From the NCBI RefSeq assembly GCF_036010325.1, contig NZ_CP108549.1, positions 62,001-126,000 on the forward strand: DNA of 64,000 nt, given 5' to 3'. The notes under the pieces are model-generated. The model ran no database searches and was not told the DNA's origin. It saw nothing but the letters and a program-made list of their open reading frames with translations. The position numbers and the translations under genes were made by a program. Source of the DNA: Streptomyces sp. NBC_01210. Lineage in GTDB: Bacteria; Actinomycetota; Actinomycetes; Streptomycetales; Streptomycetaceae. Positions 724 to 36,407 of the stretch are shown piece by piece (within the stretch, counting starts at the first letter, position 1; every line of letters starts with the position of its first letter).

Positions 724-3700
724 GTGAGTGAGGCAGCACGGGCAGACGCCGGGGGCAGCGCCGGGGCGGGCGGCTTCGACTACCAGCACCGCGTGGCCGC
801 CTGGCTGGCTGTCACCGCTGTAGCGGCCTCCGCCTCCCCCGGCGTCCAGGGGCTGTGGACCGGAACTGTGGAACGGATTGCCTGCGAAACCGGCGAACCC
901 GTCGACGACTGCCGAGTGCACACCTCCGATCGCCGGACACTAGCGATCCAAGCTAAGCGGTCAATCACGCTGTCTCAGTCAAAGGAGAGCGAACTTGGCA
1001 AGACCGTCGCGCAGTTCGTTGAGCAGCACCTCATGCCAGGCCATGAGCAAGACCGGCTGATCCTCGTCACCTCCCGTGACGCCTCAAAACCGGTGAGGAA
1101 CGACCTCGCGCAAGTTCTTGATCGCCTCCGTAACGCTCCTGCCGAGCAGGACGGGGCGTCGCTCGTCTTCAACAGCGACCAGACTGACGCCTACGACAAG
1201 TTCGTCACTCACGCGATCCGGCAGTGGGCGAAGCAGCGCGGCGGCACGCCCTCAGCCGCAGAACTGAGGACGTTCCTCGCCCGCTGCCACGTATGGGTCC
1301 TGGACGTCGGGCAGGGCGGTCTGGAAGAACGAGAGGCCCTCCAGACACTGCGCACGTCCGTGATCACTGATCCCGGCCAAGCGGACGCGGCATGGCACGT
1401 ACTGCTCAGCGCCTGTGCACAGCTGGCCATCAACCATTCCGGCACCGACATGAGACAGCTGCAGCAGGCGCTGTCATCGGCCAGCATCGCGCTGGCCACC
1501 ATCCGAGACTTCACCTCGGATGTCCAGTGCCTGACCAGAACCACGCAGGACACCCTCGATCAGTTGGGCCATGGCCTCACTACCGTCCCCACGCCGCAGG
1601 GGCCTGTGGCCATTGCACGCACGGTCACAGGCATCGGAGCGACGTCCCGGGAGGGCTCGGTCCTCGTGGCTGGCGAGCCGGGTGCGGGAAAGACCGTGGT
1701 GATGCACGAGTTGGCCCGGGAGGCCATCGCAGCAGGTCGGCCCGTACTTTTCTTGTCCGTAGCCGGCGTGGATGCCCGGAGTCCTGGCATGCTCCAAGCG
1801 GAACTCGACCTGCAGCACCCGCTCGTCGACGTTCTCGAGCAGTGGCAGCCCGGCAGCACCGGCCTCCTGGCGATCGACGCCCTGGATGCCGCACGCGTCG
1901 ATGCCTCCACCGAGCTGTGGCGGTCAATCATCGCGGATGTCAACCGCAGGCTGCCGAACTGGCAGGTGGTCGCCTCCATCCGCACCTGGGATCTACAACA
2001 CTCCCCCCAGCTGCGCTCCCTCTTTCCAGACGGGCCGGTACAGATGGGTGATCTGACGGACGAAGAGGTCGCCCAGGTCACCAACGTCTTCCCCTCCTTG
2101 CGTGACCTTCTGAGCCAGGCTTCCGACCAGCAGCGACAGCTGATGCGCAACCCGTTCAACCTGCGCCTGGCTGCCGAACTCCTGCTGGATGGCGCAGCAG
2201 CAGCACAGCTACGCACCGTCGACAGCAGATTGGACCTGCTGGAGCGCTACTGGGAGGCGCGCGTCACCCGGGGAACCGAGGGCATCGCGAAAACGGCCCT
2301 CCTCGGCCGCCTGTGTGCAGCAGCGGTACAGGAGAGACGACTGGCCGTCCCCGCCCAGAAGATCTTGGAGGGCGACACCGCAGCATCAGACGTCCTGCGG
2401 GCCCTCCTTTCCAGCTCGGTCCTCACGCAAGCTCCGACGGTCATGGGTCCGACGGCCAACGGTCCCCTGCAATTCGCGCACCACGTGCTGTTCGACTACG
2501 CCGTCGCCGTCACCTACCTCTCCCAGACTCCAGACGGGCTGCAGGAGCGGCTGGACGCCGATCCCGACCTGTTGCTCTTCGCCCGCCCCAGCATCGACAT
2601 GTACTTCCGGACGGCCTGGGCGCGAGACCCCGGCGTGTTCTGCGCGCTGGCTCTGGCCTTGATGACGCTGCCCTCGCCCGGGATGGCAGCCACCGCACTC
2701 GCAGACGTCGTCACAGACGACTGCGATCAGACAGCAGACCTGGAGCCATTGCTCTCACCGGATCCACGCACCGAAGAGGGAGCGAACCGGGTACTCGCAG
2801 CAATCGCCATCGCTGTCTCACTCAAGCTGAAGGAAAGCAGCGTTCAGCACCCTGGTGTCTGGGCCGAGGTTGCTGAACGCCTCTCCCGGAGACCTGGCGC
2901 ATCCCTCCCGGCGCTGGGTGTTCTGGTGACCGACCTGACATCCCATCGGGCGGTGCTAGACGAACAGCAGCTGCGACTCTGCGGACTGGCAGCGCGGCGC
3001 CTGCTCGAACACCTGTGGACCCAGCCTCCAACCCCCGCATCCCGGCTGGCCATCACCGCAGTCATCCAAACCGCAGCAAGCGACCTGGCCTCGACCGAGA
3101 CGCTGCTCAGACGCGCTGCGGAGTCGCCCCAACTCGAAGAGCGCGGGTTCAACGATCTCGACTCGATTACCAGCGAGGTTTCGGAGCTGATGGATCTCCT
3201 GCCGAACCTCGCAGAAGACCTTTACGTGGCTGTGCTAAGCCACACCGAGACGTCCTCGGCCAGCACACAGCTGGGCAGCGGCTCCGTGCTCACGTTCGTG
3301 TCTAATCGCCGGCAGGACTTCGACTCAGCTAAGTACCCCCTAGTCGAACACTTCCCTGCCATTCTGCGGTCCCACCTCCCTCGTGCCCTGGCGGTTCTCA
3401 CCCGCCTGGCAGTCGCTGGCCGGGACCTACCCGAGCATTCGGCTGGCCTGGGAAACCGCATTTTCGTGATCATTGAGGACGGCTCACGCCGACGGGATTT
3501 CGCCTCCCCCTACGCGGGCAGTGACCCGACGGACCTGCTCGGCGCGTTTCAGGACTTCGCCGTCACGGCCACTGAGACGCAGGCCCAGGCACTTTGCGAG
3601 GCGCTCACGTCGTCTCCGCGAGCAGCTGTTGTGTGGCGACGCACCCTGCGTGCGGCGGCCGCCAACCCTGCTCTGGCAGCCTTCATGGTCAGTGAGCCGG

Positions 3701-5415
3701 CCGACGTCGTGACGCAGCTACTCATCCCGGACCTGGTCGGACCTGCGTGCGAGCTGATCAGCGCAGTGCACCCCACACTCGAACCTGCCGAAGCTGCCCG
3801 CCTGGAGTCCGCGATCATCTCGATCCGGCCAGCCGCTTCTCACCACGAGCAGGGTGGGTTGGAGCAGCGCCGTTACCGAAGGCTCGTCAGCGCGCTCTCC
3901 GCAGAGCACCTCACCAGCCCATCTCTGACAGCAGACAGGACTGCACCGGATCCGGCGTTTGACGCTGACCCTATGGCCTGGAGTGGTGAGGAGCGCGCCG
4001 AAACCGCGGAGGAAGACCCGGCGGACGCCGAGCTGCGCCAGCTGACTGCGGCCCTCAGCAGTTTCGCGAGTACCTATCTCAACGGCACCGCCTCTTCAGA
4101 CGACATCGCATCCGCCGAGCACACGGCGACCAGGCTAGAAGCGGCCCTGCCGCAAACACAGTCCGTGGATCTGCGCACGCAGGCAGAGGACGCCCTCGCT
4201 GATGCTGCTGAGATCTGGACCCGTAGCGCGCAGACTCCGTCGGCAATCCTGAGCCACGCGCGCACCCTCCTTCTTTCGGCGTCAAGAAGCCCTCGACCCG
4301 AACCCACTCCGGAAAACGCCACGTTCAACCTGGCGATTCCCCAGGGCCCGCGAACCGAAGCGGCCCGTGGTCTTGGTCAACTGGCCGGCATTCCAGCGCA
4401 GTACAACCCCGAGGTGACCCACGCATTGCTCGCGCTGACAGCGGATCCCGTGGGGGCCATCCGGCACACCGTGTCTCTGATCGCCCCTTCCGTGGCCGTC
4501 AGCGACACCGGAACGGCGTGGGAAATCCTCGAGCACCTCGCGGAGCACGACATCGACGACGCTGTGCTCGCTGCCACGGTCACCACGGCCTGCTTCCGTA
4601 TGAACGACGCTCAACGCGGCGCTTCGATCCTCGCCACAGTCATGGGGCGCGCGGCCCCGCGCCCGGGCCGCGACACCGCCGCTTCCGCTTGCGCAACCGC
4701 CGCCGGGCTCCTGTGGATCCACCACGCGACGCCCGGAACGGACACCGCCCTCACCAGCATGATCACTCGCTGGTCGGACGGCAGTACCTGGTCCGGTTGT
4801 CTCCACGAGCTGCGCGTCTCCGGAGCGCTCACCCACGGCAACGACACTGTCCGGCGACGCGCGCTCAGGCTGATGCAGCAGCTCGCCGAACCAGCCCTGG
4901 ACCGAACCCGTCATGCTCTGATCCAGTATCGAACCCTGACCGACGCCGAGCGTGAGCAATTCAAGAACACCGCCTGGCTCCTCGACCACATCGCCTCACA
5001 GCTCTACTACGCAAGCGGCGGCGTCCCCAACAGCACACCCCCCACCACGCAAGAAGCCAGACTCGTCGACGAGGCACAGCCACTGATCAAGCTGCTCTCG
5101 GCGACCCCAATCGCGCGCACCGCCCACCACCTCGTCAGACTGTGTGAGCGCATGATCGACCAGCGCCCGCAGGAGACGCTCCTCACCGTCCGCGACATCA
5201 TCACCCAGGTCGGTGCCCAAAGCGGCTACACCGCAGACCCCCTCGGCGTAGGAACCTGCGTCACCTTCGTGGAACGCATCCTCGCCGACCACCGCAGCCT
5301 CCTCCGCAGCCCGGACAACCTCACCGCCCTACGGCAGATCTGCGACGCCTTCATTGACGCCGGATGGCCCCAAGCCCACAAACTCGTCTTCGGCATCGAA
5401 CAGATCTTCCGGTAA
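724..5415 (+). CDS. Cap4/DUF4297-like nuclease fused to a STAND-type NTPase with long helical C-terminus (Avs-like defence protein)
   Basis: The 1563-aa protein has three parts. Residues 1-200 resemble a Cap4/DUF4297 PD-(D/E)xK nuclease: GGFDYQ at 16-21, E55, D61-D62, and the QAK motif at 76-78. Next comes a P-loop NTPase, with GEPGAGKT at about 317-324 and a Walker-B-like LLAIDALDA near 380-388, followed by a winged-helix-like region. The remaining ~900 residues are leucine/alanine-rich and look like helical repeats. Avs/STAND proteins use this layout to sense phage proteins with the repeats, oligomerise through the NTPase and activate an N-terminal nuclease. That function is inferred from architecture. 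The GTG or ATG start at 724 follows a GAGGAG-like ribosome site. A helicase fragment starts 16 bp downstream. Confidence 0.72.
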   Translation: MSEAARADAGGSAGAGGFDYQHRVAAWLAVTAVAASASPGVQGLWTGTVERIACETGEPVDDCRVHTSDRRTLAIQAKRSITLSQSKESELGKTVAQFVEQHLMPGHEQDRLILVTSRDASKPVRNDLAQVLDRLRNAPAEQDGASLVFNSDQTDAYDKFVTHAIRQWAKQRGGTPSAAELRTFLARCHVWVLDVGQGGLEEREALQTLRTSVITDPGQADAAWHVLLSACAQLAINHSGTDMRQLQQALSSASIALATIRDFTSDVQCLTRTTQDTLDQLGHGLTTVPTPQGPVAIARTVTGIGATSREGSVLVAGEPGAGKTVVMHELAREAIAAGRPVLFLSVAGVDARSPGMLQAELDLQHPLVDVLEQWQPGSTGLLAIDALDAARVDASTELWRSIIADVNRRLPNWQVVASIRTWDLQHSPQLRSLFPDGPVQMGDLTDEEVAQVTNVFPSLRDLLSQASDQQRQLMRNPFNLRLAAELLLDGAAAAQLRTVDSRLDLLERYWEARVTRGTEGIAKTALLGRLCAAAVQERRLAVPAQKILEGDTAASDVLRALLSSSVLTQAPTVMGPTANGPLQFAHHVLFDYAVAVTYLSQTPDGLQERLDADPDLLLFARPSIDMYFRTAWARDPGVFCALALALMTLPSPGMAATALADVVTDDCDQTADLEPLLSPDPRTEEGANRVLAAIAIAVSLKLKESSVQHPGVWAEVAERLSRRPGASLPALGVLVTDLTSHRAVLDEQQLRLCGLAARRLLEHLWTQPPTPASRLAITAVIQTAASDLASTETLLRRAAESPQLEERGFNDLDSITSEVSELMDLLPNLAEDLYVAVLSHTETSSASTQLGSGSVLTFVSNRRQDFDSAKYPLVEHFPAILRSHLPRALAVLTRLAVAGRDLPEHSAGLGNRIFVIIEDGSRRRDFASPYAGSDPTDLLGAFQDFAVTATETQAQALCEALTSSPRAAVVWRRTLRAAAANPALAAFMVSEPADVVTQLLIPDLVGPACELISAVHPTLEPAEAARLESAIISIRPAASHHEQGGLEQRRYRRLVSALSAEHLTSPSLTADRTAPDPAFDADPMAWSGEERAETAEEDPADAELRQLTAALSSFASTYLNGTASSDDIASAEHTATRLEAALPQTQSVDLRTQAEDALADAAEIWTRSAQTPSAILSHARTLLLSASRSPRPEPTPENATFNLAIPQGPRTEAARGLGQLAGIPAQYNPEVTHALLALTADPVGAIRHTVSLIAPSVAVSDTGTAWEILEHLAEHDIDDAVLAATVTTACFRMNDAQRGASILATVMGRAAPRPGRDTAASACATAAGLLWIHHATPGTDTALTSMITRWSDGSTWSGCLHELRVSGALTHGNDTVRRRALRLMQQLAEPALDRTRHALIQYRTLTDAEREQFKNTAWLLDHIASQLYYASGGVPNSTPPTTQEARLVDEAQPLIKLLSATPIARTAHHLVRLCERMIDQRPQETLLTVRDIITQVGAQSGYTADPLGVGTCVTFVERILADHRSLLRSPDNLTALRQICDAFIDAGWPQAHKLVFGIEQIFR

Positions 5416-5430
5416 CTGCTCCACACCCTC

Positions 5431-6687
5431 ATGACGGCCGCCCCTGAACCACGCCAAACATGCCCATTACTTCACCAGCACCAGATAAAAGGCCTACGCT
5501 CGCACGATGAACGACTCGTCGAACAACTCGCCTCCCGCGCCCTCAGCAGCGGGAAGCGCAAGGTCCACGTCCGGCGCGATGAAGAAGGGCGGATCGTCGG
5601 AACCGGCGGCGAGGTGGGCGCGGACGAGGAGCAGGACGACACCAACCGTGCGGTCGAGTCCGCCCTGCTCCACTTCTCCTCTCCCCGGGACGCAGCCACG
5701 ATCGCCGCGTTCCTGCGCACCCGGGTCTACCGGCCGGAGTCACTGGTGTGGCTCGAGGGCTACCAAGCCCTCCTCCACTGGCGGAAGAAGCACCACATCA
5801 CCGGCCTCTACGCCGTCCCCTACGACACCGAGGTTGAAGTAGGAGTGACGAAAGATTTTCCGCTTGGACGATGGGTCCACCAACAGCGGAAAGCACTGCG
5901 GACAGGGGAGCTGGAGGAACGGCGCAAGACCCTGCTGGACGCGCCGGAGGCCGGGATGGTGTGGGAACCGGGCGAAGAAGCCTGGGAGAACAAGCTCGCC
6001 GCTCTCCGGTCCTACCAGCGGGCCACCGGGCACCTCGCCCCCCGACAGGACGCCGTCTGGGGCGAGGGCGAGGCGACGGTGCCCATCGGTCAACACACGG
6101 CCAATCTGCGCAGGAAGGGCGGCCTCGGGAAGAACGCGGAACGTGCGGCGGAACGCACGCAGCAACTGGCCGCGATCGACCCCGACTGGAACTGCCCCTG
6201 GCCGCTCGACTGGCAGCGCCACTACCGCGTCCTCGCCGACCTCGTCGACGCCGACGGCAGCCTCCCCGACATCGCACCCGGGGTACTGATGGACGGCGAC
6301 GACATCGGACGGTGGCTGGAGCGGCAGACCCAGCCAGGCACTTGGGCACAGCTGTCCACCGAACAGCAGGAACGGCTGTCCCAGCTGGGCGTACAGCCGC
6401 TTGAGGCGCCCTCTCCCGCCCCGACGGCCACGCGTACGACGAAGAGCCCCAGCAAGGCGGAACGGGCGTTCCAGCGGGGCCTGGCGGCCCTCGCACAGTG
6501 GGTCGAGAGGGAAGGCACCCACCGGCCCGTACCACGCAGCCACGCTGAAGAGATCACGGTCGACGGCGAGACCGAGCCGGTAGTCGTCAAGCTGGGCGTA
6601 TGGACATCGAACACCCGCGCGAGGCGGGACAAACTCACCCAGGAACAGCTGGACGCCCTGCGGGAACTGGGCATCGAATGGGCGTAA
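5431..6687 (+). pseudogene. C-terminal fragment of a Streptomyces telomere-region helicase (helicase-associated repeats)
   Basis: The 418-codon frame matches only the C-terminal part of the large HA-repeat helicases found near Streptomyces chromosome ends. From about residue 27 (DERLVEQLASRAL) it contains the family's linker, then SPRDAATIAAFLRTRVYRP, LVWLEGYQALLHWRKKH and several helicase-associated modules with W.CPW..DWQRHY and PLGRWVHQQR motifs. The Walker A and B motors of the N-terminal half are absent, so it cannot be an active helicase. The first ~26 residues look unrelated, and no ribosome site precedes 5431. I read this as a 5'-truncated gene fused to the sequence after the nuclease gene. 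It might still be translated. Confidence 0.7.
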
Positions 6688-11644: not shown

Positions 11645-13060
11645 ATGGTCGGCAGCAGTGATCGTGCAACGCTTCGCGCCCTGCTAGACACCGCCGTCGC
11701 GCCTCTCAGCAACCTGACGCACACCGTGCTGAGTCAGGCCTTCGAGCGATTGGGCATGCCGGCGATTCCCCAGAACGCCGGCAGCAAGCCGGCCCGGGTT
11801 GAACAGAGCCTCCAGCAGGTACCCGACACGGAACTGCCACGACTGGCCCAACGCGTCCTACAACAGCAGGACTTCCCCTTCCCTGTGTGCCCGCCGCTCC
11901 GCCATCAGCTCGAAGACCTGCTGTGGGAAGAGGGCGCACCACCCGGCATCCCCAAGAAGGCCCGCCGTGAACTGGCGCGCGCCCTGTATCTCCCGGATCT
12001 CACCCAGCACCATGACCGCTTCCTGCATCTGCTCGATCGCCTCTGGGTGATCGAGGGACCGGACCTTTCCTTCGACGAGTTCAGCGCGCTGCTGCTGAAC
12101 GGGACGCGGCCGGTGACGCTGAAGGACCTCATCGAAAAGCACGTCTTCCGCAACGAGGAGGACTGGTCGACCGAACGGCTTTTCGACAGCCTCGGTGCGT
12201 TCGAGGCAGGGGACGCCAGGTTCGCCCGCTTCCTGGAAGGCCTGGTCTCGGCGGACGTTCTCCTGGACGAGCACCTGCAGGAGAAGACAGCCAGCACGAT
12301 CAACGATCACCTCCGCGCCCATGGGATCGAGTTGCGGCAAACCGGCAACGATGGCGGGTATCCGCTATTCACCCTGGTGTCGACGCGGCTGCACAGCAGT
12401 CGGAAGCCGAAGAACATCATTTTCGCTTCCCTCGGAAAGCCGGACATTCGTTTTCGGTCCTCGGTGGACAACGACATCGAGATCGTCGGTGGGCGACCAG
12501 GTGCCACCCTTGTCTATGACCGGGAGATTCCTGTCGAGGGTCTGCGTTGGCGTGACCTGCACCGCTGGTGGCAGGACACCCACGGGTTCAACAGCGAGAG
12601 TGACGCCGGTGAAGATCTTTACCAGCGGCTCCTCAGGAGCCTGCCGGGCAACTCACCTGGTCAGAGGAACCTCTTCACGGCCTACCGTACGGCTCGCCCG
12701 TTCTGCGCGGATGACCTTGCTCTCCTGCCCGAGGTATGGCTGCACTGGGATCCCAAGACCGTTAAGGAACGCGGCCCCGAAGCGTTGCTGCGTTCCCGCA
12801 TGGACTTCCTTCTGCTGCTGCCCTTCGGGCAGCGTGTCGTCCTGGAGATCGACGGAGTGCAGCACTACACGCGCGACAACGGCCGTACCCCCGACACGGC
12901 CAAATACGCGGACATGGTCGCCGCCGACCGGGATCTCAAGCTCAGGGGGTATGAGGTCTTCCGCTTCGGTCACGACGAACTGAAACGGCCCGAGGACGCC
13001 AAGGATCTTCTACTCCAGTTCATCCCGGACATGTTCAGCCGCTTCAGAGTCAGACTCTGA
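11645..13060 (+). CDS. AbiJ-NTD3-like abortive infection protein with C-terminal PD-(D/E)xK nuclease-like domain
   Basis: The 471-aa protein has a helical N-terminus. Its middle region fits AbiJ-NTD3: FLEGLVSADVLLDE, then RKPKNIIFASLGKPDIRF, DNDIEIV and LRWRDLHRWWQD, at about residues 195-305. The last ~100 residues resemble a Vsr/DUF559-like nuclease, with LEIDGVQHY, KYADMVAADRDLKLRGYEVFRFG and a terminal helix. Families with this combination are predicted to act in abortive infection. The start at ATG 11645 lies 73 bp after the HEPN-like gene, and the two may be co-transcribed. A strong hairpin follows. Confidence 0.65.
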   Translation: MVGSSDRATLRALLDTAVAPLSNLTHTVLSQAFERLGMPAIPQNAGSKPARVEQSLQQVPDTELPRLAQRVLQQQDFPFPVCPPLRHQLEDLLWEEGAPPGIPKKARRELARALYLPDLTQHHDRFLHLLDRLWVIEGPDLSFDEFSALLLNGTRPVTLKDLIEKHVFRNEEDWSTERLFDSLGAFEAGDARFARFLEGLVSADVLLDEHLQEKTASTINDHLRAHGIELRQTGNDGGYPLFTLVSTRLHSSRKPKNIIFASLGKPDIRFRSSVDNDIEIVGGRPGATLVYDREIPVEGLRWRDLHRWWQDTHGFNSESDAGEDLYQRLLRSLPGNSPGQRNLFTAYRTARPFCADDLALLPEVWLHWDPKTVKERGPEALLRSRMDFLLLLPFGQRVVLEIDGVQHYTRDNGRTPDTAKYADMVAADRDLKLRGYEVFRFGHDELKRPEDAKDLLLQFIPDMFSRFRVRL

Positions 13061-13866: not shown

Positions 13867-15124
13867 GTGGGGGACGTGGCGCAAGCGCGATCGCATTCGG
13901 CCGCGGGCCAGATGATGGGCTACCTCTATCAATGCGAGCTAGCCCTTCTTGAACTCGCACGCCGCAGCTGGGACGACAATACCGTTGAAGTGCGTATGGA
14001 ACTTCTCGACGACATCGAGTTCCTGCGCCACGAGACGCAGGATCCCCTTGAGCTGCTGCAGTCCAAGTACCGAGAGGCGGCCGGGCAGCTCAGCGAGACT
14101 GGAAAAGACTTCTGGCGCTCAGTCACCTTGGATCGACTCTCTGAACGTCAGCGCCGACCAATCAGCCCTCCCGCTACCCATCCTGCGACTCGTCTCGACA
14201 CAGGTTGCCAAAGAGGGGACCTTCCTCCACTTCCTGCGTTCAGGCCCTGACCGGAACGTAGGCCGGGCTCTGGCGCGCATGGAGGAAGTTGCCACCGACG
14301 CAGACGGACCCGGAACCACGGCTGACGACCGCGCGCTCTTCATGGAGCTCACGACAGCGCAACGGCACAAGCTCGTCACCGCCATGGTGGTCGATGACGG
14401 TGCACCAGTGATGTCAGACGTCGACCGTAGTCTCGCCAAGGAGCTGGGGATCACCCCTAGCGAGCACGCGGGTGCAGTGCTAGACGAGATCAAGGGCTGG
14501 TGGTATCGCGTGGCCGTGCGTCTGCTAGAGCGCAAGGACCCTACCTACATGCTGGCCTCGGTCAGTGCTGAAGAACTCCTGTGCCGCCGCGATGAAGCCG
14601 TCGATCGGTACACCGGCAAGAGCTTGCCGATCACCGAGACCCTCCGCAATCTCACCGAGGCAGAGATGGCCCCCTACCGGAACCGGCTGGTCGTTTCGCA
14701 GATGCAGTGGATCGGTCTCCCCGACACCGAGATCGCGATGCATCTACGCGACTACCACTACGCGCGGGCGCAGCGCTCCGAGTGGCTTAGGAGCTTCAAA
14801 GTCACCGCGGATGGGCTGGATGCATACGAGCGTGATCTGCACTACGAGTGGGAGAGCGTCTTCCGGCGTCGTACCCGCCGCGTCGATGATGCGACCAGCG
14901 AGACCGCTCGGCAGGACATCGGTCAGGACGTCTTGGACGGGACGATGGAGAAGGTTGCTGATAAGTCGGCTCGGCCAGGCACCAGCACGGCCCCCTGGAT
15001 CGGTCGAGGATCCATCCACGACCTCTGCGACAGGACGGAGTACGTGGGGAGCGATCGAGCTGTGGGCTGGCACCCCGACCACCCCCGTCTGTGCAAGGAC
15101 CACATCGAGGCCGCGGACCAGTGA
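13867..15124 (+). pseudogene. ABC-3C system large component (nuclease-like), frameshifted at 14128
   Basis: The protein reads in two frames. The first, from GTG 13867 (or 13876), gives HSAAGQMMGYLYQCELALLE, a VRMELLDDIEFL acidic motif, LLQSKYREA and the GKDFWRSVT block typical of the ABC-3C large component with its Cap4-like fold. At 14128 one T too many in ACCTTGG shifts the frame. Dropping it gives VTWIDSLNVSADQSAL and then an uninterrupted ~320-residue remainder ending VGWHPDHPRLCKDHI, another ABC-3C hallmark. The stop overlaps the next start (GTGA). The frameshift could be inactivation, a regulated shift or a sequence error; the otherwise intact reading frame favours something recent. Confidence 0.72.
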
Positions 15125-15606
15125 CCACACCGGCCCCACTCCACCGCTCGGCGGAAGCGCAGGCGCTTCTCAACCCGGCATTCGGCGCCTACCTGCTGGC
15201 CCACAGCATCTACGCTGCGCAAAGCAAAAAGGGGCGGCCAATGCCGTGGCCGTCCGCGTTTCTCGTCCTGCCGCTCGTCCTTCCGGCCAAAGCTCGAAAC
15301 AGCCTTCCGGGTAATTCGACGGTCTCACTCATGGCGTGGGCGGATAAAAACCCCCTTCAGCACGCAGCCTTCGCCGAGCGGGCGGTCTCGCTGACCAGCC
15401 TCACACGAATGAGTCTGCGTATGGCGATGCGCCACCAGGCTATGGAAGTCACACCGCTCGGCCTGCGTTGTCCGCGCAAGCCCAAGGCGGCCCCTAGCTT
15501 CGGACAAGAGGTTGCGGAGTGTGCGCGCGCTGCGGCTCTGGTAGGCCGTTGGCTTGCAGCAACCGACCCGCATCGCGCCTACACCGCTCTTGGTGTTCGT
15601 CCCTGA
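15121..15606 (+). CDS. ABC-3C system middle component
   Basis: The 161-aa protein begins at GTG 15121, which overlaps the stop of the large component by 4 nt. It shows the middle-component pattern: LLNPAFGAYLLAHSIY, PSAFLVLPLVLPAKAR, LPGNSTVSLMAWADKNP and a helical end. In ABC three-component systems the middle component is thought to bridge the large effector and the ATPase. The start was chosen by coupling and by where conservation begins. The ATPase gene follows after 21 bp. Confidence 0.75.
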   Translation: MTTPAPLHRSAEAQALLNPAFGAYLLAHSIYAAQSKKGRPMPWPSAFLVLPLVLPAKARNSLPGNSTVSLMAWADKNPLQHAAFAERAVSLTSLTRMSLRMAMRHQAMEVTPLGLRCPRKPKAAPSFGQEVAECARAAALVGRWLAATDPHRAYTALGVRP

Positions 15607-15627
15607 CCAAGGAGTCCCAGAACCGCC

Positions 15628-17580
15628 ATGCAACTGCTTGCCCTGGCCCTCTATCACCAAGACAACGGGAAGCCCCCCAGGGTCCTGCGGTTCCACCCCG
15701 GGCGGCTGAACATCCTGACCGGAGAGTCCGAAACCGGGAAATCCGGCGTCCTCGCCATCATTGACTTCTGCTTGGGTCGTAGCAAGCCCGGGCTGCCCGA
15801 CAACCCCATCGACCGTACCGTCGGCTGGTACGCGCTTCTAGCCGAGTTTCGTGACGGGCGCCGGATGGTTCTCGCACGGCCTCGCCCGGCCGGCGAGTCC
15901 ACAAATGAGGCGTTCGTACGCTCCGGAGACCAGACGCTCAGTCTTCCCAGCGCTGCTGAACTCCACGTCAACTCGAACGCCGCCGCGCTGCGCGGCGAAG
16001 TCAGCGCGCACCTCGGAATCGAAGACTTCCGCTTCCAGCCTCCAGCTAGCGCTGCCCGCTACCCCTTCGACGTCTCTGTAGCTCAGGGCGCCCTGTTCTG
16101 CTTCCAAAACCAGGACGAGATCGCTGCCTCCAAAACTCTGTTCCACCGTCAGACCGAGGACGGCATCGCGCAAGCCATTAAAGACACCCTGCCCTACTTC
16201 CTCGGCGCTGCTGGCCCTGAACAGGCCCTTCGGCAATACCGGCTCGGCGAAGCCCGCCGCGAGGTACGCACCGCGCAGCGCAAGCTCGACGCCGCCCTGC
16301 GACAGCGCGAGGTCTTGGACACCAATGGCATCGCCTTGCTCAGGCTCGCGCAGAGTGAGGGGCTTCTCAGTGACGTTCCCGCAGCCCCTGACGCCGACAC
16401 GGTGCAGGCCCTGCTCCGAAAGGCGCTCGCCGTCCCACCCCTCGCTCCGATCAGTTCCGACGTCGGCGACCGCCGTCAGGAGCTGAATGAGGAGCGTCGA
16501 ACGCTGCGGGCCCAGCTGCAGGAGTTCGATGCTGCCCTGGCCACCGTCGACCGTTGGCAGCGCAGAAGCTTCGACTTCACAGGAGAGCTGCACCTCCAGG
16601 TCGACCGGCTCAAGACACTCGATCTTCTGGGGCCTGAGAGGGATCACGACACCGACGTCTGCCCAATGTGCACCCAGCCCCTTGAACACCGGGATCCTTC
16701 AGCCCAGGACATCTCGAGGCTGACGATCCGGCTCTCAGAGGAACTGGAGCAGGCCGCCGGAGTTCAGCCCGTCCGCCAAGAGCATCTTCGGGCCCTGCAA
16801 GTCCAGCGCGATGGCCTGGCCGAGCGACTCAAGGCCAACGGCGCGCTCCTGAAAGAGCTGATGGCGAGCGATGAGAACATGGCTCGCCTGCAAGAACAGC
16901 ATTTGCGAGCAGCGCACCTCCAAGGACGCATCGCACAATCTCTGGCTCATGACCGCCGGCCCACCGACGACGTCGGTCAGCTGCGCAATGCGCTGGCATC
17001 CGCGCAAGAAGTCGTCAGCGTTCTCGAAGAGCACACAGCCAACGACGACGTACCCGCCGAGACGGAGCGCCGTCTCGCTGACATCGCGGCTCAAATGACC
17101 CCGTGGGCGCGGCGGCTCAAGCTTGGTCAGTCAGAAGAGCCGAACGAGGCCGGCATCAGCTTCAAGAAACTCAGCGTGGTCATCCGGCGGCCCCAGGACC
17201 GTCTCCCTCAGGAACGCGTTGGCAGCGCCAAGAACTACATCGGCTACCACCTCGTGGCCCATCTCGCCCTGCACACCTACCTGCGCCACCACCACAGGCC
17301 CGTCCCTAGCTTCCTCGCGCTGGACCAACCCACGCAGGCGTTCTTCCCGTCCAAGCCCCGCGACGCGTCCACCGTCCCAGACGCCGACTGGTCCACCGTC
17401 ACCGAATATTTCCGACTCCTACATGACGTCTCGGAACTCAACCAGGGCGATCTCCAGATCATCGTCTGCGACCACGCAAATCTCCCGGACGACTGGTTCC
17501 AAGAAGCTGTGATCGACAACTGGAGGCCCGACGAGGACGGCACACGCAACGCGCTCATCCCCCCGCGCTGGCTCACCTGA
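15628..17580 (+). CDS. ABC-3C system ATPase (SMC/Rad50-like, DUF3732)
   Basis: The 650-aa protein has a Walker A motif GESETGKS at residues 32-39, a long coiled-coil centre interrupted by a CPMC zinc-hook-like pair near residue 345, and a Walker-B-like FLALDQPTQ near residue 560. This is the SMC/Rad50-like ATPase of ABC-3C systems, which are predicted to be antiphage or anti-mobile-element systems. AAGGAG precedes ATG 15628. It is the last gene of the three-gene operon and is intact. Confidence 0.8.
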   Translation: MQLLALALYHQDNGKPPRVLRFHPGRLNILTGESETGKSGVLAIIDFCLGRSKPGLPDNPIDRTVGWYALLAEFRDGRRMVLARPRPAGESTNEAFVRSGDQTLSLPSAAELHVNSNAAALRGEVSAHLGIEDFRFQPPASAARYPFDVSVAQGALFCFQNQDEIAASKTLFHRQTEDGIAQAIKDTLPYFLGAAGPEQALRQYRLGEARREVRTAQRKLDAALRQREVLDTNGIALLRLAQSEGLLSDVPAAPDADTVQALLRKALAVPPLAPISSDVGDRRQELNEERRTLRAQLQEFDAALATVDRWQRRSFDFTGELHLQVDRLKTLDLLGPERDHDTDVCPMCTQPLEHRDPSAQDISRLTIRLSEELEQAAGVQPVRQEHLRALQVQRDGLAERLKANGALLKELMASDENMARLQEQHLRAAHLQGRIAQSLAHDRRPTDDVGQLRNALASAQEVVSVLEEHTANDDVPAETERRLADIAAQMTPWARRLKLGQSEEPNEAGISFKKLSVVIRRPQDRLPQERVGSAKNYIGYHLVAHLALHTYLRHHHRPVPSFLALDQPTQAFFPSKPRDASTVPDADWSTVTEYFRLLHDVSELNQGDLQIIVCDHANLPDDWFQEAVIDNWRPDEDGTRNALIPPRWLT

Positions 17581-20225: not shown

Positions 20226-20999
20226 CTAGCCGCCGGCAGATGAGTCGGGCTTGCCGGTCGGCCCCTTGGGCCGCTTGTTGGGGCGGTAGCTGGGGCTGTT
20301 CATAATGATCTGGTGGCTGGCGTTGATCAGCCGGTCCAGGAGTGACTCGGCGACGACCGGGTTGGGGAAGAGTGGATACCAGTCGCTGGGCGCCCGGTTG
20401 CTGGTGATGATCAGAGACCGTCCCTGCCGCTCGGAGACGAGTTCGTAGAGGTCGTCGGCCTGGGACGCGGACAGTTGACGCATGGCGAAGTCGTCAAGGA
20501 TGAGCACGTCGGGCCGGATGAGGTCACGCATGCGCTTGTCCCAGGTGCGGTCCGCGTGGCCGCCGGCGAGCTCGCCCAGGATGCGGCTGGTCTTGGCGAA
20601 GCGGACGTTGGCGCCCTGCCGGACGGCTTGGTGGGCGAGAGCCTGGGCGACGTGTGTCTTCCCGACGCCGACTGGTCCGAACGGAATTACGGACTCGCCG
20701 GAGTGGAGCCAGCGCAGGGCCGCGAGGTCGCGGATCTGGGCGGCGGGAAGTTTCGGGGAAGCCTGGAAGTCGAAGCCTTCCAAGGTGGCCTGCTGTTCGA
20801 ACCTGGCCCGGCGCAGGCGCCGTTCGAGGGCCACGGTTTCACGGCGGGTAATCTCGTCCTGGCAGAGGACCTGGAGGAAGTCCAGGTGCCCGAGTTCTCC
20901 GCCTTGGGCCTGAGTAAGACGGGCGTCGAGGGTCTCGAGCATCCCCGAGAGTCGCAGGGTCTTGAGCGACTCGCGCAGGGCGGTGGTCATCACGCTCAT
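20226..20999 (-). CDS. istB: IS21-family helper ATPase IstB
   Basis: The 257-aa AAA+ protein has Walker A GPVGVGKTH near residue 109, Walker B VLILDDFAMR near residue 170, the arginine-rich N-terminal domain (ITRRETVALERRLRRARF) and a sensor region LIITSNR. IstB binds target DNA and stimulates the IstA transposase. Its ATG at 20999 overlaps the istA stop by 4 nt, the usual translational coupling of this family. It appears intact. Confidence 0.92.
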   Translation of the reverse strand: MSVMTTALRESLKTLRLSGMLETLDARLTQAQGGELGHLDFLQVLCQDEITRRETVALERRLRRARFEQQATLEGFDFQASPKLPAAQIRDLAALRWLHSGESVIPFGPVGVGKTHVAQALAHQAVRQGANVRFAKTSRILGELAGGHADRTWDKRMRDLIRPDVLILDDFAMRQLSASQADDLYELVSERQGRSLIITSNRAPSDWYPLFPNPVVAESLLDRLINASHQIIMNSPSYRPNKRPKGPTGKPDSSAGG

Positions 21000-22612
21000 C
21001 GCGTGGCCTCCTCGGCGTCGCCGTGGCCCTGGTCGTCGTGGAGTTCGACTGGCCTTTGGGCGGGAATGTCGGCGGCGAACAGTCCCTCGGGGCCGTGCAG
21101 GAAGGCCGCGGCCCCCGCGTCGCCGGTGTCCGGCTCGGGATCGGTCTCGGTGCCGGCGACCAGGATGCCCTTGACCGTGCGATAGGACGGATCACCAACC
21201 GTGATCGCCTTCCTGCAGGCGGCCTCCAGTCGCGTGTCGCCGTACTTCTTCCGCAGCCCGATGACCCCTTGGGCAGCGCGGAGCCGGTAGAGTGCGTTGA
21301 CCTCCAGAAGTTGGTCGATCACCTCCCGGCAGCAGTCGCCGACCTGCGAGGCTTGGCCACGGCACCAGATCGGCGTCCGCATCTGGAAAGCGATCTTCTC
21401 GGGCGGATAGTCGCCTCTGTCGGTGCGCTTGCCCTGTTCCAGGGCCGCGTGCGTCTTGACGAGCTCACCCTCGTGGAAGATCTGCACCATCGTGGCGGTG
21501 GAACGGACGTCGACGCGTCGCCCGACCAGTTTCCAGGGCACCGAATAAAGGGTGCGGCCGACCTTGACGTGGATGTCCGGGCCGACGGCGGCCTTCGACC
21601 ACTTGGCCAGCACGAATGACTCCCGCGGCAGCGGCAGGAGGGTCTCGGCCTCCACCGCCTCGAACACCGCCAGCGGCTTGGCCCCGCCCAGCGGCCGGCA
21701 CTGCCGCTGACCAGCGACGTTCCTGCCCCAAAGAAGGGCCTCGGCCTGCATGTGCTCCAACGAGGTGAACGTCCGCCCGCTCCAGAGCGAGTCCCGAACA
21801 TAGGGCATGGGCCGCTCCACTCTGGGCTTGTCCTTCGGATGAAGAGCCCGTGCCGGATCCACCAACGTGCCGTAATGCGAGGCGAGTTCGGCATACGACT
21901 TGTTGATCTGCGGGTCGTAGAGGTCGGGCTTGTCCACCCCGGTCTTGAGGTTGTCCGGCACCAAACGTCGCGGGACGCCGCCGAAATAGCGGAAGGCTTC
22001 CACGTGCGCGACGGTCCACGAGTGCTGATCCATGTGCACCACGGGGCGTACGAACATGTGCCGCGAGGCGGGCAGCACCATCACAAACGCCCAAATCCGG
22101 TGCCGCTTACCGGTAGTTGGGTTGAACCACTGTCCCAGGAAGCCATAGTCGATCTGGGCCTCCGAGCCCGGCTCGACGTCATCCCGCAGCACCGTGACCT
22201 TGGAGCGGGCCGCCTCGTCGGGCAGGTTCTCCGACACCCAGCGGCGGAACGTCGACAGCGACACCTTCAACTTGCCTTCGTCCCGCAGCCGTTGATGGAT
22301 CGTAGTGACCGTCGTGGTCCTCAGCAGCTCCTTGACGAAATCGCGGTGCGGTTCGATCTCTCCCCACCGCACCTGGTTCAGCTTCCGGCTGGCGAGCTCC
22401 GGGAACCAGCTCTTGAGTAGTTTGGCCCAGTCCGTCTCGCTCATTGGCGGCCCGCCCGGGCTGATCCCGGCCGCCTCCGCCGGCGCCAGGTACTTCCTGA
22501 TCGTCTTGCGGTCCACCCCCAGCGAGGCGGACACCTGACTCTTGGACCGGCCCGCGTACCAGTGCACGTAGATCTCGACGATGTCGACCACGGTGAATGT
22601 TCTCCTTGCCAT
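20996..22612 (-). CDS. istA: IS21-family transposase IstA
   Basis: The 538-aa protein from ATG 22612 has an N-terminal helix-turn-helix (IVEIYVHWYAGRSKSQVSAS), a DDE integrase core (VEPGSEAQIDYGFLG; HMFVRPVVHMDQHSW; LVPDNLKTGV; and RVERPMPYVRDSLW with the catalytic glutamate), and a C-terminal Mu-like beta domain (VGRTLYSVPWKLVGRRVDV). It recognises the terminal boxes and performs transposition. A longer frame to 22738 covers IS end sequence and is not the start. AAGGAGA lies just upstream of 22612. Confidence 0.92.
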   Translation of the reverse strand: MARRTFTVVDIVEIYVHWYAGRSKSQVSASLGVDRKTIRKYLAPAEAAGISPGGPPMSETDWAKLLKSWFPELASRKLNQVRWGEIEPHRDFVKELLRTTTVTTIHQRLRDEGKLKVSLSTFRRWVSENLPDEAARSKVTVLRDDVEPGSEAQIDYGFLGQWFNPTTGKRHRIWAFVMVLPASRHMFVRPVVHMDQHSWTVAHVEAFRYFGGVPRRLVPDNLKTGVDKPDLYDPQINKSYAELASHYGTLVDPARALHPKDKPRVERPMPYVRDSLWSGRTFTSLEHMQAEALLWGRNVAGQRQCRPLGGAKPLAVFEAVEAETLLPLPRESFVLAKWSKAAVGPDIHVKVGRTLYSVPWKLVGRRVDVRSTATMVQIFHEGELVKTHAALEQGKRTDRGDYPPEKIAFQMRTPIWCRGQASQVGDCCREVIDQLLEVNALYRLRAAQGVIGLRKKYGDTRLEAACRKAITVGDPSYRTVKGILVAGTETDPEPDTGDAGAAAFLHGPEGLFAADIPAQRPVELHDDQGHGDAEEATR

Positions 22613-22805
22613 CCGGTGTGCCCGTTGACCTCTCGGCTCGCAGGTCAAGGGACCGCGACGACTCCGAGAGGACAGGACCCTCAACCCGGGCACCGGCATG
22701 CCCATGGGGAACCCGACCGATTCGCAAGGAAGATCCAACAGCAGTTCAAACCACCCGAAACAGGGAACATCGGACCAGTTCGAGCATGGTCAGCAGCACC
22801 ACCTA

Positions 22806-33617: not shown

Positions 33618-34175
33618 CTACAGGTCGAAGTCGAGGTGCTCGATGTCGGTGAAGCGGACCTCTTCCAGGCTTCCGGCGCGGCGGCCGCCGTCCTGGAAGT
33701 ACACCTCCTTGAGTGCTTCGGCTGCGATCTCCCGCAACCGCTGTTCGCTGGCACCCTGTTCCTGGGCTTCGAAGAGTTGGGCGGCGTAGCGGGGCGGCAG
33801 CGCGACGGTCAGGTGCCGGATACGGTCCTGGTCCGTGGAGCCGATCGGCGCGGTGTAACCGAGGCGGGCGCGGGTGTCGATGACGATGCCGCCGGTGGTC
33901 GCCGCCTGCTGCCGTGCCTTGGCCCGGATCTGCGGCTGCCACCGCTTCTTCACCTCACGCTCCAGGCGGGCGGCGAGGTCCGGGCGGGGCTTCTTGATCT
34001 GGTCCTTCACGTACCGCTCGACGGTGCGCTGGGAGATCCGCAGCATCTGGGCGACCGCCTTGGTGCCCTTGTACTGCTTGACCAGGTACCGCATCTGGGC
34101 GCCGGCTGACTTCGGCGCGGGGCGGGTGAATGCCTTCTGCACCGCCTTGTCGAGGCCGTCCCCGAATGTGCTCAT
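33618..34175 (-). CDS. tpg: telomere terminal protein Tpg
   Basis: The 185-aa protein has the length and sequence pattern of Streptomyces Tpg: PKSAGAQMRYLVKQYKGTKA, a helix-turn-helix ISQRTVERYVKDQIKKPRPD, then RWQPQIRAKARQQAATTGG and the conserved end EVYFQDGGRRAG with FTDIEHLDFDL. Tpg is covalently attached to the 5' ends of linear replicons and primes end patching. It starts 6 nt after the tap stop, with GGGAAG upstream. Intact tap-tpg indicates a linear chromosome arm or linear plasmid. Confidence 0.92.
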   Translation of the reverse strand: MSTFGDGLDKAVQKAFTRPAPKSAGAQMRYLVKQYKGTKAVAQMLRISQRTVERYVKDQIKKPRPDLAARLEREVKKRWQPQIRAKARQQAATTGGIVIDTRARLGYTAPIGSTDQDRIRHLTVALPPRYAAQLFEAQEQGASEQRLREIAAEALKEVYFQDGGRRAGSLEEVRFTDIEHLDFDL

Positions 34176-34181
34176 CGCCTG

Positions 34182-36407
34182 CTACTTCCCGTTGTCGGCG
34201 TCGGTGACGGTGCCGTCCTTGATGTACCGGGCGAGGTTGAGCTCCGGGGCGTCAAACTGCTCGCGGACGCCCTCGCCCCACAGCACGCTCTGGGTGCCCT
34301 CCCACTTGACCAAGCCGGGGTTCACGCCGAGCTTGAAGCCGCCCGGCAGCGGCTTGCCGTCCCGGTAGGGCAGGAAGTCCAGCAGGCTCTCGCCATCAGC
34401 CGCATACACGACGCAGTCGGAGAGAATCGCCACCGGGTACTGCCCGGTGAACGCCGCGTGCTTGACGATCTTGCGGTGCAGGTTGATCCGCGTGCGGGAG
34501 ATGACCGCCGCACGGATGTCCGGCCGCCACGTCGGACGGGACAGCGCCCGCCACGGCTGGCCGGGCTTCCAGCCCTCGCCACGGGGCCGCTCACGCAACT
34601 TGCCCAGGCCGCCCTTGACCGTCGCCTTGACCGCCGAGACGACGATCGCCAGCTCCGGGTCACGCTGCCGGTAGCCGTCCATCGCCGCCAGGAAGTCGGC
34701 CGGCGACAGGTCCGCGTCGACGCCGAGGTCGGCCATCGTGGCGAGGTAGGCGTCGCGCAGCCGGTTGTACCAGCCGTCCAGGTAACGGCCGTTCTCGTAG
34801 CGCACCCACGCCTCGACCGGACGTACGTCGTAGCCGAGCTCCACCGCGTAGGCCACGGTCGGCGTGGCGTACCAGGCCGGGCCTTCCGGTCGCTCGCCCT
34901 TCGGTGTGAACGGGCTGGGCAGCAGACTCGCGTCCAAGTCCGCCCACTTGTCCTTGCCGACCTTCACACGGGACAGGTCGACGTGCGACAGGTCGACCAG
35001 CCACGAGCCGGGCAGCTTCGGGTCGAACACCGGCTGCTTGACCTGTGTCGGCTCGCCCAGCCCGACGACCAAGCCGTTGGCTCCGGCGGCGAAGGCCATG
35101 TTCACGTCGATGCCGACCAGGTGCCGCAGGGAGCACTCGGCATCGGTCATCGGCCGCGCCCAGTCGTACGCTTCCTCGAACAGCTTCTCCGCCGGGCCGC
35201 GCACGTGGAAACGCGGCAGGCCGGCCAGGAGCGGGTGGCCGTCCGGGGCCTCGCACGGGGCGCAGTCGACCGGGTCCTTGCCCAGTGAGCCGGGGTTGTG
35301 CTCGGAGTGCCGCTTGCCGTCGGCGCCGGGCTCGGAGGCGCGCGTCGGCGGGTGGAAGGCGGTCATCAGCTCCAGGCCGGTCACGGCGGTGGAGCCGCGC
35401 GGCGTCATCACCCGGGACGCGAACGTGCCCAGGAGCCGGGCGAGTTCCGCCGGTGCCAGCTGTGCGGCATGGCCCCAGTGGCGGGTGTCGAGCGCGTTCC
35501 AGGACGGGATGCACAGCTGCACGCACATCCGCTCGGAGCTCTGCGCCGGGCGGTAGATCCGCGCCCACGGTCCGAACCCGCGCTTGGTGAGCTTCCACTC
35601 CGCGCGGGCCAGCTGCTTGATGACCTTGTGGCCCTCCGGGATCCGCCCGGCGAGTCTCTCGTCCTCGGTGAGGGCAACGGGCAGGCCGTAGCGTTCCAGC
35701 GCGGATGGGGTGAGCACCAGCAGCGGGTCGGCGTCCTTGCCCGGCCCGGACAGCTTGGGCTGTCCGAGCTTGGCCTCCTTGAGGGTCCAGTCGACCAGGG
35801 CCGAAATGGACTTGGCGGGAACGTCCAGGACCAGGCCGCCGACGCAGTACGCCAGCACCTGACCGTCTGTGTCAACGTCGATGACGGCGAGCGGCCCGTT
35901 CTCAAAGCGCAGGTCGTCGTCGGCCTCCACAGAAACACGACCGGCCGCCTTCCCCGTCGGCCGCCGGGACAACGGCGTCCCGGTCCTCGCCGGGCGGGCA
36001 GCCTGGCCGGAGCGCTGCAAAACGCCCGGCTTCGCGGCGACCGGCATGCTTTGCGGACCTGTGCCCGCGAGTTCGGGGCGCGAGGGGGCGGGCGGGGCCG
36101 GCGGGCTGGGCGGGAAGCCGGGGTTGCTGTCAGGAGGCAAGGTGGGCTGCGGGTAGCGGTGGGCGAGACCGTCGAGCAGTCTGCGGTATGCCTCCAGGCG
36201 CTCCCCCTTCGGTTCGGCCCGGCCCGCCTCCCACGCGGTGATACTCGGTACGCGCACACCCAGCGCCTGGGCGATGGCTGCCTGGGTCAGACCGGCCGCC
36301 TCCCGCAACCGCACCCGCTCGGTCGGAGCGGGCAGCACGGTGCCGCCGTCGACCGCGGCAAGGAGTGAGTCGACAGCCGAGAACAACTCGTCGGGCTGAT
36401 GCGTCAT
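34182..36407 (-). CDS. tap: telomere-associated protein Tap
   Basis: The 741-aa protein matches Tap in length and order. An Xre-type helix-turn-helix covers residues 26-60 (RLREAAGLTQAAIAQALGVR and SITAWEAGRAEPKG), followed by a proline-rich linker to about 150. A long conserved region then carries RIYRPAQSSERMCVQLCIPS, YDWARPMTDAECSLRHLVG and RTRINLHRKIVKHAAF. Tap binds telomeric 3' overhangs and recruits Tpg for end patching. AGGAAG precedes ATG 36407, and the HTH-like gene ends 19 bp upstream. Confidence 0.92.
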   Translation of the reverse strand: MTHQPDELFSAVDSLLAAVDGGTVLPAPTERVRLREAAGLTQAAIAQALGVRVPSITAWEAGRAEPKGERLEAYRRLLDGLAHRYPQPTLPPDSNPGFPPSPPAPPAPSRPELAGTGPQSMPVAAKPGVLQRSGQAARPARTGTPLSRRPTGKAAGRVSVEADDDLRFENGPLAVIDVDTDGQVLAYCVGGLVLDVPAKSISALVDWTLKEAKLGQPKLSGPGKDADPLLVLTPSALERYGLPVALTEDERLAGRIPEGHKVIKQLARAEWKLTKRGFGPWARIYRPAQSSERMCVQLCIPSWNALDTRHWGHAAQLAPAELARLLGTFASRVMTPRGSTAVTGLELMTAFHPPTRASEPGADGKRHSEHNPGSLGKDPVDCAPCEAPDGHPLLAGLPRFHVRGPAEKLFEEAYDWARPMTDAECSLRHLVGIDVNMAFAAGANGLVVGLGEPTQVKQPVFDPKLPGSWLVDLSHVDLSRVKVGKDKWADLDASLLPSPFTPKGERPEGPAWYATPTVAYAVELGYDVRPVEAWVRYENGRYLDGWYNRLRDAYLATMADLGVDADLSPADFLAAMDGYRQRDPELAIVVSAVKATVKGGLGKLRERPRGEGWKPGQPWRALSRPTWRPDIRAAVISRTRINLHRKIVKHAAFTGQYPVAILSDCVVYAADGESLLDFLPYRDGKPLPGGFKLGVNPGLVKWEGTQSVLWGEGVREQFDAPELNLARYIKDGTVTDADNGK

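What the first reader, a model, noticed from the sequence alone, without database searches (positions are those of the whole stretch)
13867..17580. Complete three-gene ABC-3C system with a single-base frameshift in the effector gene
Seen: three overlapping or closely spaced genes with AAGQ...YLYQ / DDIEFL / WHP motifs, a middle component and an SMC-like ATPase with a CPMC hook. The first gene needs one T removed at 14128 (ACCTTGG) to read through. Known: ABC-3C systems were proposed from comparative genomics as conflict systems, and few are tested. Inferred: either this strain lost the effector recently while keeping the rest, or the shift is regulated or erroneous. A silenced effector with intact partners would be informative about toxicity.
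Basis: partly seen in the sequence, partly recalled or inferred. Interest (0 to 1): 0.75.

Follow-up and report, generated by a model that had tools for sequence, protein, structure and literature searches.

The report
Lamassu defence system with broken nuclease
A known kind of bacterial anti-phage and anti-plasmid system (Lamassu) sits near the end of a Streptomyces chromosome with its DNA-cutting part recently broken, which is probably ordinary gene decay and not a new mechanism.

Summary
The three genes at 13867-17580 are real and form a type II Lamassu (DdmABC-like, "ABC-3C") operon: LmuA (Cap4-like nuclease + CTD7), LmuC (MC3) and LmuB (SMC/Rad50-like, DUF3732). LmuA is broken: homology runs in one frame to about 14127 and continues one frame over to the stop at 15124. 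Of 20 Streptomyces LmuA loci, 19 read straight through and 1 is cut by a contig end. All 19, and an intact 99%-identical allele, have one residue more at the break, so the lesion is best read as a net loss of two bases, not one extra base. The predicted product is 87 correct plus 40 wrong residues: it keeps the presumed catalytic residues but lacks the rest of the nuclease fold and CTD7. LmuB and LmuC look intact; no second CTD7 or DUF3732 match was found in the genome. An assembly error is not excluded, but no clear frameshift was found among 46 gene-like core ORFs (one weak candidate unresolved). Programmed frameshifting is unsupported. LmuA loss beside full-length LmuB was seen in three other loci, too few to claim effector-first loss. 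Lamassu at Streptomyces chromosome ends is already published.

The parts
13867..14127 (+). lmuA, N-terminal piece in its own frame (87 residues): first helix and three strands of a Cap4-like PD-(D/E)xK nuclease, with the conserved LDD and LLQSK motifs
   Evidence: (LmuA profile 1.6e-10; Cap4_nuclease 0.00052, below its cut-off)
14120..14132 (+). the frame break: the frames cross about here; net loss of two bases against intact relatives
14128..14250 (+). out-of-frame run (40 wrong residues) to a premature stop, giving a predicted 127-aa product
14129..15124 (+). lmuA, remaining piece in the next frame: rest of the nuclease fold and CTD7, open for 331 codons to the natural stop
   Evidence: CTD7 5.1e-33; LmuA 2.7e-26
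15121..15606 (+). lmuC (MC3 middle component), looks intact
   Evidence: (1.1e-36)
15628..17580 (+). lmuB (SMC/Rad50-like sensor ATPase, DUF3732), looks intact; GESETGKS at residue 32, CPMC at 345, ALDQP at 564 (Gln where Walker B usually has Glu)
   Evidence: (1.8e-106)

Best explanation
This is a type II Lamassu operon near one end of a linear Streptomyces chromosome. Its effector gene lmuA has recently been inactivated by a net two-base loss inside the nuclease domain. In an intact system (known from other Lamassu) LmuB with LmuC holds LmuA inactive and senses abnormal DNA structures or ends; it then releases LmuA, which forms a tetramer and cuts DNA, stopping the plasmid or phage at the cost of the cell. 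Here the sensor and middle component could still be made, but the nuclease would be a 127-aa stump without the rest of its fold or the CTD7 part. The most likely phenotype is loss of defence, with the remaining genes drifting. Shown here: identity of the three parts, the lesion in the given sequence, near-identity to an intact allele, open frames of the partners, no second copy found. Inferred: that the lesion exists in the organism, that the stump is inert, and the mechanism, which is carried over from relatives.
For: LmuA, LmuC and LmuB profiles match in operon order, and so do CTD7, MC3 and DUF3732. The closest solved chains for LmuB and LmuC are Lamassu proteins. A model of the intact relative P0004 (pLDDT 86.5, pTM 0.59) has chains of Lamassu entries (LmuA alone or in complexes) as its first 16 PDB matches, best E 4.3e-15, and places the lesion in helix 65-77, which follows the QxK strand. 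19 of 20 LmuA loci are open across the break (1 cut by a contig end). P0004 differs at 3 of 403 aligned residues plus the missing one, and the piece after the break is still open for 331 codons, so the lesion looks young. One DUF3732 and one CTD7 match in the whole genome at E <= 0.001.
Against: No reads or second isolate could be examined. The two copies of the 58-kb chromosome end differ by three homopolymer-length gaps and one mismatch, and one weak frameshift candidate among the core ORFs is unresolved. Cap4_nuclease is below its cut-off on the N piece and on P0004, and was not listed for P0012 and P0090; the nuclease call rests on the LmuA profile, the invariant D34/Q50/K52 and fold matches whose TM-scores to Lamassu chains are modest (TMq 0.28-0.49). 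Against the stump being inert: a V. cholerae study reported that ddmABC mutants with severely truncated proteins kept protection against one phage; the review that tells this urges caution (PMC12409362, passage).
Confidence: 0.73

Rival explanations
1. Assembly or sequencing error: the living strain has an intact lmuA and an ordinary working Lamassu.
For: An almost identical intact allele exists. Spurious frameshift pseudogenes are common in public assemblies (PMC11017572, abstract and outline seen). The genome's duplicated ends differ by three homopolymer-length gaps in 58,042 columns. One of 46 gene-like core ORFs has a weak split-frame candidate that I did not resolve (ORF 8, 26 residues at 58%, 25 bits).
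Against: Of 61 core ORFs compared with a relative, 3 were flagged as split; on inspection two are not gene-like and one is an upstream extension into another gene. A laxer repeat found 46 of the 61 gene-like (21,120 aa): 39 are covered over 90% in one frame, and of the other 7 only ORF 143 (dismissed) and ORF 8 (weak) have a complementary piece in another frame close by. The lmuA lesion is two bases and not in a run longer than two, unlike the three gaps. lmuC and lmuB, 2.4 kb beside it, show no break.
Confidence: 0.22
2. Effector-first loss: Lamassu tends to lose LmuA before its sensor, because a DNA-end sensor coupled to a nuclease is costly near the ends of linear chromosomes.
For: Beside full-length LmuB, LmuA is broken in three other loci by three different lesions: frameshift near residue 326 in L107 (Streptomyces sp. 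Tue 6430), N-terminal half missing behind a transposase-like sequence (recognised by eye) in L103 (Streptomyces sp. AC1-42W), first 51 residues missing beside a helicase-like frame (by eye) in L176 (G414). In G070 no LmuA of this type was found in the 6.6 kb upstream. One case of the reverse was seen: G195, LmuB match ends at residue 521 with LmuA open.
Against: Tiny numbers: 3 against 1 without the window. LmuB was the bait in most searches, which favours finding intact LmuB. Three LmuB remnants have no LmuA match (L143, L146, L147), which fits plain decay. Shortened LmuB proteins such as P0100 and P0114 also exist. LmuC breaks were not counted, and the L107 frameshift could itself be an assembly error.
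Confidence: 0.12
3. Programmed +1 frameshifting produces full-length LmuA at a controlled level.
For: Only that the downstream frame is still open and conserved, which recency also explains.
Against: 19 of 20 relatives have an uninterrupted gene (1 cut by a contig end), and the shifted product would be one residue short of all 19. No stop codon or run longer than two bases sits at the junction (sequence). Broken LmuA genes elsewhere are broken at other places.
Confidence: 0.02

Closest known systems
Type II Lamassu / DdmABC (Vibrio cholerae, Salmonella enterica; PDB 9hqu, 9hqx, 9hr5, 9nxx, 9ny5, 9uxh, 9uxl)
   Same: Same three components: LmuA with a Cap4-like nuclease and a C-terminal ABC-3C domain, LmuC, and LmuB with Walker A, a CPxC hook and Gln in place of the Walker B Glu (PMC10586767 passages for hook and Gln)
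   Different: lmuA is broken here; the hook reads CPMC-T, where the review gives CPxCG or similar; the parts are distant from the solved ones (LmuB E 1.1e-50, LmuC E 1.6e-4, LmuA E 3e-6 with the intact allele)
ABC-3C systems (the comparative-genomics name for the same set, with CTD7 and MC3)
   Same: CTD7 and MC3 both over their Pfam cut-offs
   Different: Only the frame break
Lamassu of linear Streptomyces replicons, e.g. plasmid SLP2 of S. lividans 1326 (NC_004933.1)
   Same: LmuA and LmuB at 4.4-8.1 kb from an end of the linear plasmid, LmuB 50% identical
   Different: SLP2 LmuA is open over 99% of the query

Membership tests
Lamassu type II (DdmABC) | LmuB: SMC/Rad50-like ATPase of about 650 aa, full length, Walker A, hook, Walker B | tested here: met
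Lamassu type II (DdmABC) | LmuC middle component between lmuA and lmuB | tested here: met
Lamassu type II (DdmABC) | LmuA with N-terminal effector domain and C-terminal ABC-3C domain | tested here: met
   by homology of both pieces and fold of the intact relative
Lamassu type II (DdmABC) | LmuA encoded as one continuous protein | tested here: not met
   frame break near 14127; so it is a Lamassu locus, but not a demonstrably working one
Lamassu type II (DdmABC) | Cap4-type PD-(D/E)xK nuclease effector | tested here: inconclusive
   D34, Q50, K52 invariant in 51 relatives; Cap4 structures among the fold matches; Pfam Cap4 below cut-off or not listed
Lamassu type II (DdmABC) | Anti-phage or anti-plasmid activity; LmuA release and tetramer on activation | not testable with these tools
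   needs a bench test; known for relatives from PMC12409362 passages
Programmed frameshift gene | Shift site conserved among relatives | tested here: not met
   19 of 20 loci have no shift, 1 cut by a contig end

The most novel reading that the evidence does not exclude
Lamassu operons at the ends of linear actinobacterial chromosomes repeatedly shed the nuclease LmuA while keeping LmuB and LmuC, either because an end-sensing nuclease is dangerous beside telomeres or because LmuBC has a nuclease-independent role at chromosome ends.
Probability: 0.1. Interest if true: 0.55.

Novelty: new member of a known kind. Interest (0 to 1): 0.2.

Why it matters
Mainly bookkeeping: a profile-based defence-system caller may list this strain as Lamassu-positive although its nuclease gene is broken. 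If the effector-loss pattern held up in a larger census, naturally nuclease-free LmuBC operons would be useful for asking whether the sensor does anything at telomeres without its nuclease.

Tried and rejected
Tried without result: a scan of genome contigs with the single LmuB sequence (none confirmed; repeated with a profile, 46 loci); viral contigs with the LmuB profile (none confirmed); a core DNA piece meant to pick a close relative, which proved poorly conserved, so G230 was used for its synteny; a paper search combining ABC-3C, Lamassu, pseudogene and frameshift (12 listed of 4,789 holding two terms). By title only PMC12409362 and PMC9148166 of those 12 concern bacterial defence; I read passages of the first and not the second. 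I make no claim that broken Lamassu is absent from print.

Rejected: one inserted T (relatives have one residue more at the break); programmed shift; a backup copy; an internal stop in LmuB of L137 (it is the natural end, residue 648); TTA-codon control (no TTA codon in the three genes' frames).

Rows dropped before counts: of 46 genome-contig loci, 3 had only an LmuB remnant and no LmuA match (L143, L146, L147); of the other 43, 3 had LmuA cut by contig ends (L117, L127, L134), 1 was inconclusive (L140, 26% identity over part), 37 were open and 2 broken. Some genomes occur in both the genome contigs set and the G sets, so the sets must not be added up. The second Lamassu copies in G253, G284, G310, G566 and G548 were not examined for LmuA on their own. 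Of the 61 core ORFs, 15 are not gene-like by base composition; one of these, with 4% GC, is probably a masked stretch.

Full report
WHAT IS THERE. The window is bases 62001-126000 of a 9.08-Mb contig in a 9.2-Mb, two-contig genome; the nearest named relatives of its LmuA are from Streptomyces. At 13867-17580 lie three genes on the + strand. The first, from a GTG at 13867, reads correctly for 87 residues and then runs into 40 unrelated residues and a stop at 14250. Homology continues in the next frame to a stop at 15124. The second gene overlaps it by 4 bases (15121-15606), and the third is 15628-17580.

IDENTITY. PADLOC profiles name the parts LmuA (N piece 1.6e-10, C piece 2.7e-26), LmuC (1.2e-5) and LmuB (1.8e-106). 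Pfam gives CTD7 (5.1e-33), MC3 (1.1e-36) and DUF3732 (5.1e-39), all over cut-off, and Cap4_nuclease on the N piece at 0.00052, below cut-off. By sequence the solved relatives are Lamassu chains: LmuB 9hqu_A (1.1e-50), LmuC 9hqu_D (1.6e-4), and, for the intact LmuA relative P0004, 9hqu_C (3e-6). LmuB has GESETGKS, CPMC and ALDQP. Gln in place of the Walker B Glu is described as general for LmuB, and a CPxCG-like hook as present in many but not all (PMC10586767, passages); here CPMC is followed by Thr.

THE BREAK. Of 20 LmuA loci in the genus sample, 19 are open over the whole gene and 1 is cut by its contig end. In all 19 the two tryptophans that flank the junction are one residue further apart than the window offers. 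P0004, 99% identical, differs at 3 of 403 aligned residues and has a serine (S73) that the window lacks. The simplest lesion is a net loss of two bases in that codon, not the gain of one. In the alignment of 51 intact relatives D34, Q50, K52 and W74 are invariant and S73 nearly so. The stump therefore keeps the presumed catalytic residues (so named from general knowledge of the PD-(D/E)xK fold) and ends inside the helix that follows them. The model of P0004 (mean pLDDT 86.5, pTM 0.59) has helix 65-77 there; the missing part holds the next strand, the later helices and CTD7. Its first 16 PDB matches are chains of Lamassu entries (LmuA alone or complexes with it); Hachiman and Cap4 follow. TM-scores to the Lamassu chains are modest (TMq 0.28-0.49).

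IS IT REAL? Two checks on the assembly. First, 61 ORFs from 200 kb of a relative's core (G230) were compared with the syntenic 200 kb of this genome. Three were flagged for split frames; on inspection two had no codon-like base pattern and one was an upstream extension into another gene. A laxer repeat counted 46 of the 61 as gene-like (21,120 aa): 39 are covered over 90% in one frame, 7 are not, and of these 7 only ORF 143 (the extension just named) and ORF 8 have a complementary piece in another frame nearby. That of ORF 8 is weak (26 residues, 58%, 25 bits) and is unresolved. So no clear frameshift was found. Second, the two chromosome ends are inverted repeats of 58,042 columns with one mismatch and three single-base gaps, all in G or C runs. 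The consensus is good but not perfect in homopolymers; the lmuA lesion is two bases and outside any run longer than two. Public assemblies do contain many spurious frameshift pseudogenes (PMC11017572, abstract), so about one chance in five is left for an error.

CENSUS. With an LmuB profile, genome contigs gave 46 loci; 43 have full-length LmuB. Among these 43, LmuA is open in 37, broken in 2 (L103, L107), cut by a contig end in 3 and inconclusive in 1. In the genus sample 24 of 392 genomes, own included, have LmuB at E <= 1e-60. Of 28 LmuB loci from it other than the own one, 27 are complete and 1 (L022, G195) ends after residue 521 with LmuA open. The three genomes there without an LmuA hit are G214 and G351, which do have LmuA, and G070, which has none in 6.6 kb upstream. 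The second LmuB loci of G139 and G196 have an open LmuA. In the family sample 19 of 394 genomes, own included, match. I examined 15 loci new to me, one per genome: LmuA is open in 14, and in one (L176, G414) it lacks the first 51 residues, with a helicase-like frame directly upstream, recognised by eye. G612 is cut by its contig end. Of 30 plasmid records with LmuB at E <= 1e-60 I fetched 5, and all 5 have LmuA open. So LmuA loss beside full-length LmuB recurs, by different lesions, but it is uncommon, and the excess over LmuB loss (3 to 1 without the window) is not convincing.

PLACE. The operon lies 75.9-79.6 kb from the contig start, about 18 kb inward of the end of the inverted repeat. Other than the own genome, 15 genomes in the two samples have LmuB on a contig of at least 4 Mb; in 12 of 15 it lies within 1% of the contig length from an end (not in G408, G530, G692), and in 4 of 15 at both ends. 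Contig ends are taken as chromosome ends here. This agrees with a published result: 31% of Streptomyces Lamassu lie in the first or last 1% of the chromosome, and their presence in terminal repeats was thought plausible (PMC10482375, passages).

HOW IT WOULD WORK. From the literature (passages of PMC12409362, PMC10586767 and PMC12904381): plasmids trigger DdmABC toxicity; LmuB is the likely sensor, of DNA ends or hairpins; LmuA is set free and forms a tetramer that activates the Cap4 nuclease. With LmuA reduced to a stump, sensing could not be turned into DNA cleavage. No second CTD7 or DUF3732 match exists in the genome to stand in. The expected state is a silent system in early decay. One published claim goes the other way: V. 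cholerae ddmABC mutants with severely truncated proteins were said to keep protection against one phage, which the review treats with caution.

VERDICT. A known system with a recent loss-of-function lesion, or less likely an assembly error.

Noticed in passing
33618-36407, - strand: The telomere pair tpg (terminal protein, NCBIfam E 1.4e-89) and tap (1090 bits) lies in the window.
   Followed up: partly
916-5412: A 1499-aa ATPase-containing protein matching the candidate defence family PDC-M54A (6.9e-220).
   Followed up: no
11645-13060: A protein with AbiJ N-terminal domain 3 (2.2e-33) and a weak DUF559 match, possibly another abortive-infection gene, just upstream of the Lamassu operon.
   Followed up: no
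5614-6687: A protein of helicase-associated (HA) repeats; relatives lie close to Lamassu in L058, L062, L063 and L064, and a helicase or helicase-associated gene adjoins Lamassu on SLP2 and on NZ_CP108139.1.
   Followed up: partly
20226-22738, - strand: IS21-type istA/istB pair, 2.6 kb downstream of lmuB.
   Followed up: no
own contig C1 1-58039 and its other end (outside the window): 58-kb terminal inverted repeat with three homopolymer-length gaps and one mismatch between the two copies.
   Followed up: yes
L193 (G070): LmuB without a recognisable LmuA; a Tpg-like protein (recognised by eye) lies upstream.
   Followed up: partly
P0187: An 807-aa protein carrying both MC3 (LmuC) and DUF3732 (LmuB): apparently a natural LmuC-LmuB fusion.
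   Followed up: no
P0114: A close LmuB relative (93% over 69%) with a PF13613 match whose first part is not LmuB (sequence): LmuB may also be lost by insertion.
   Followed up: no
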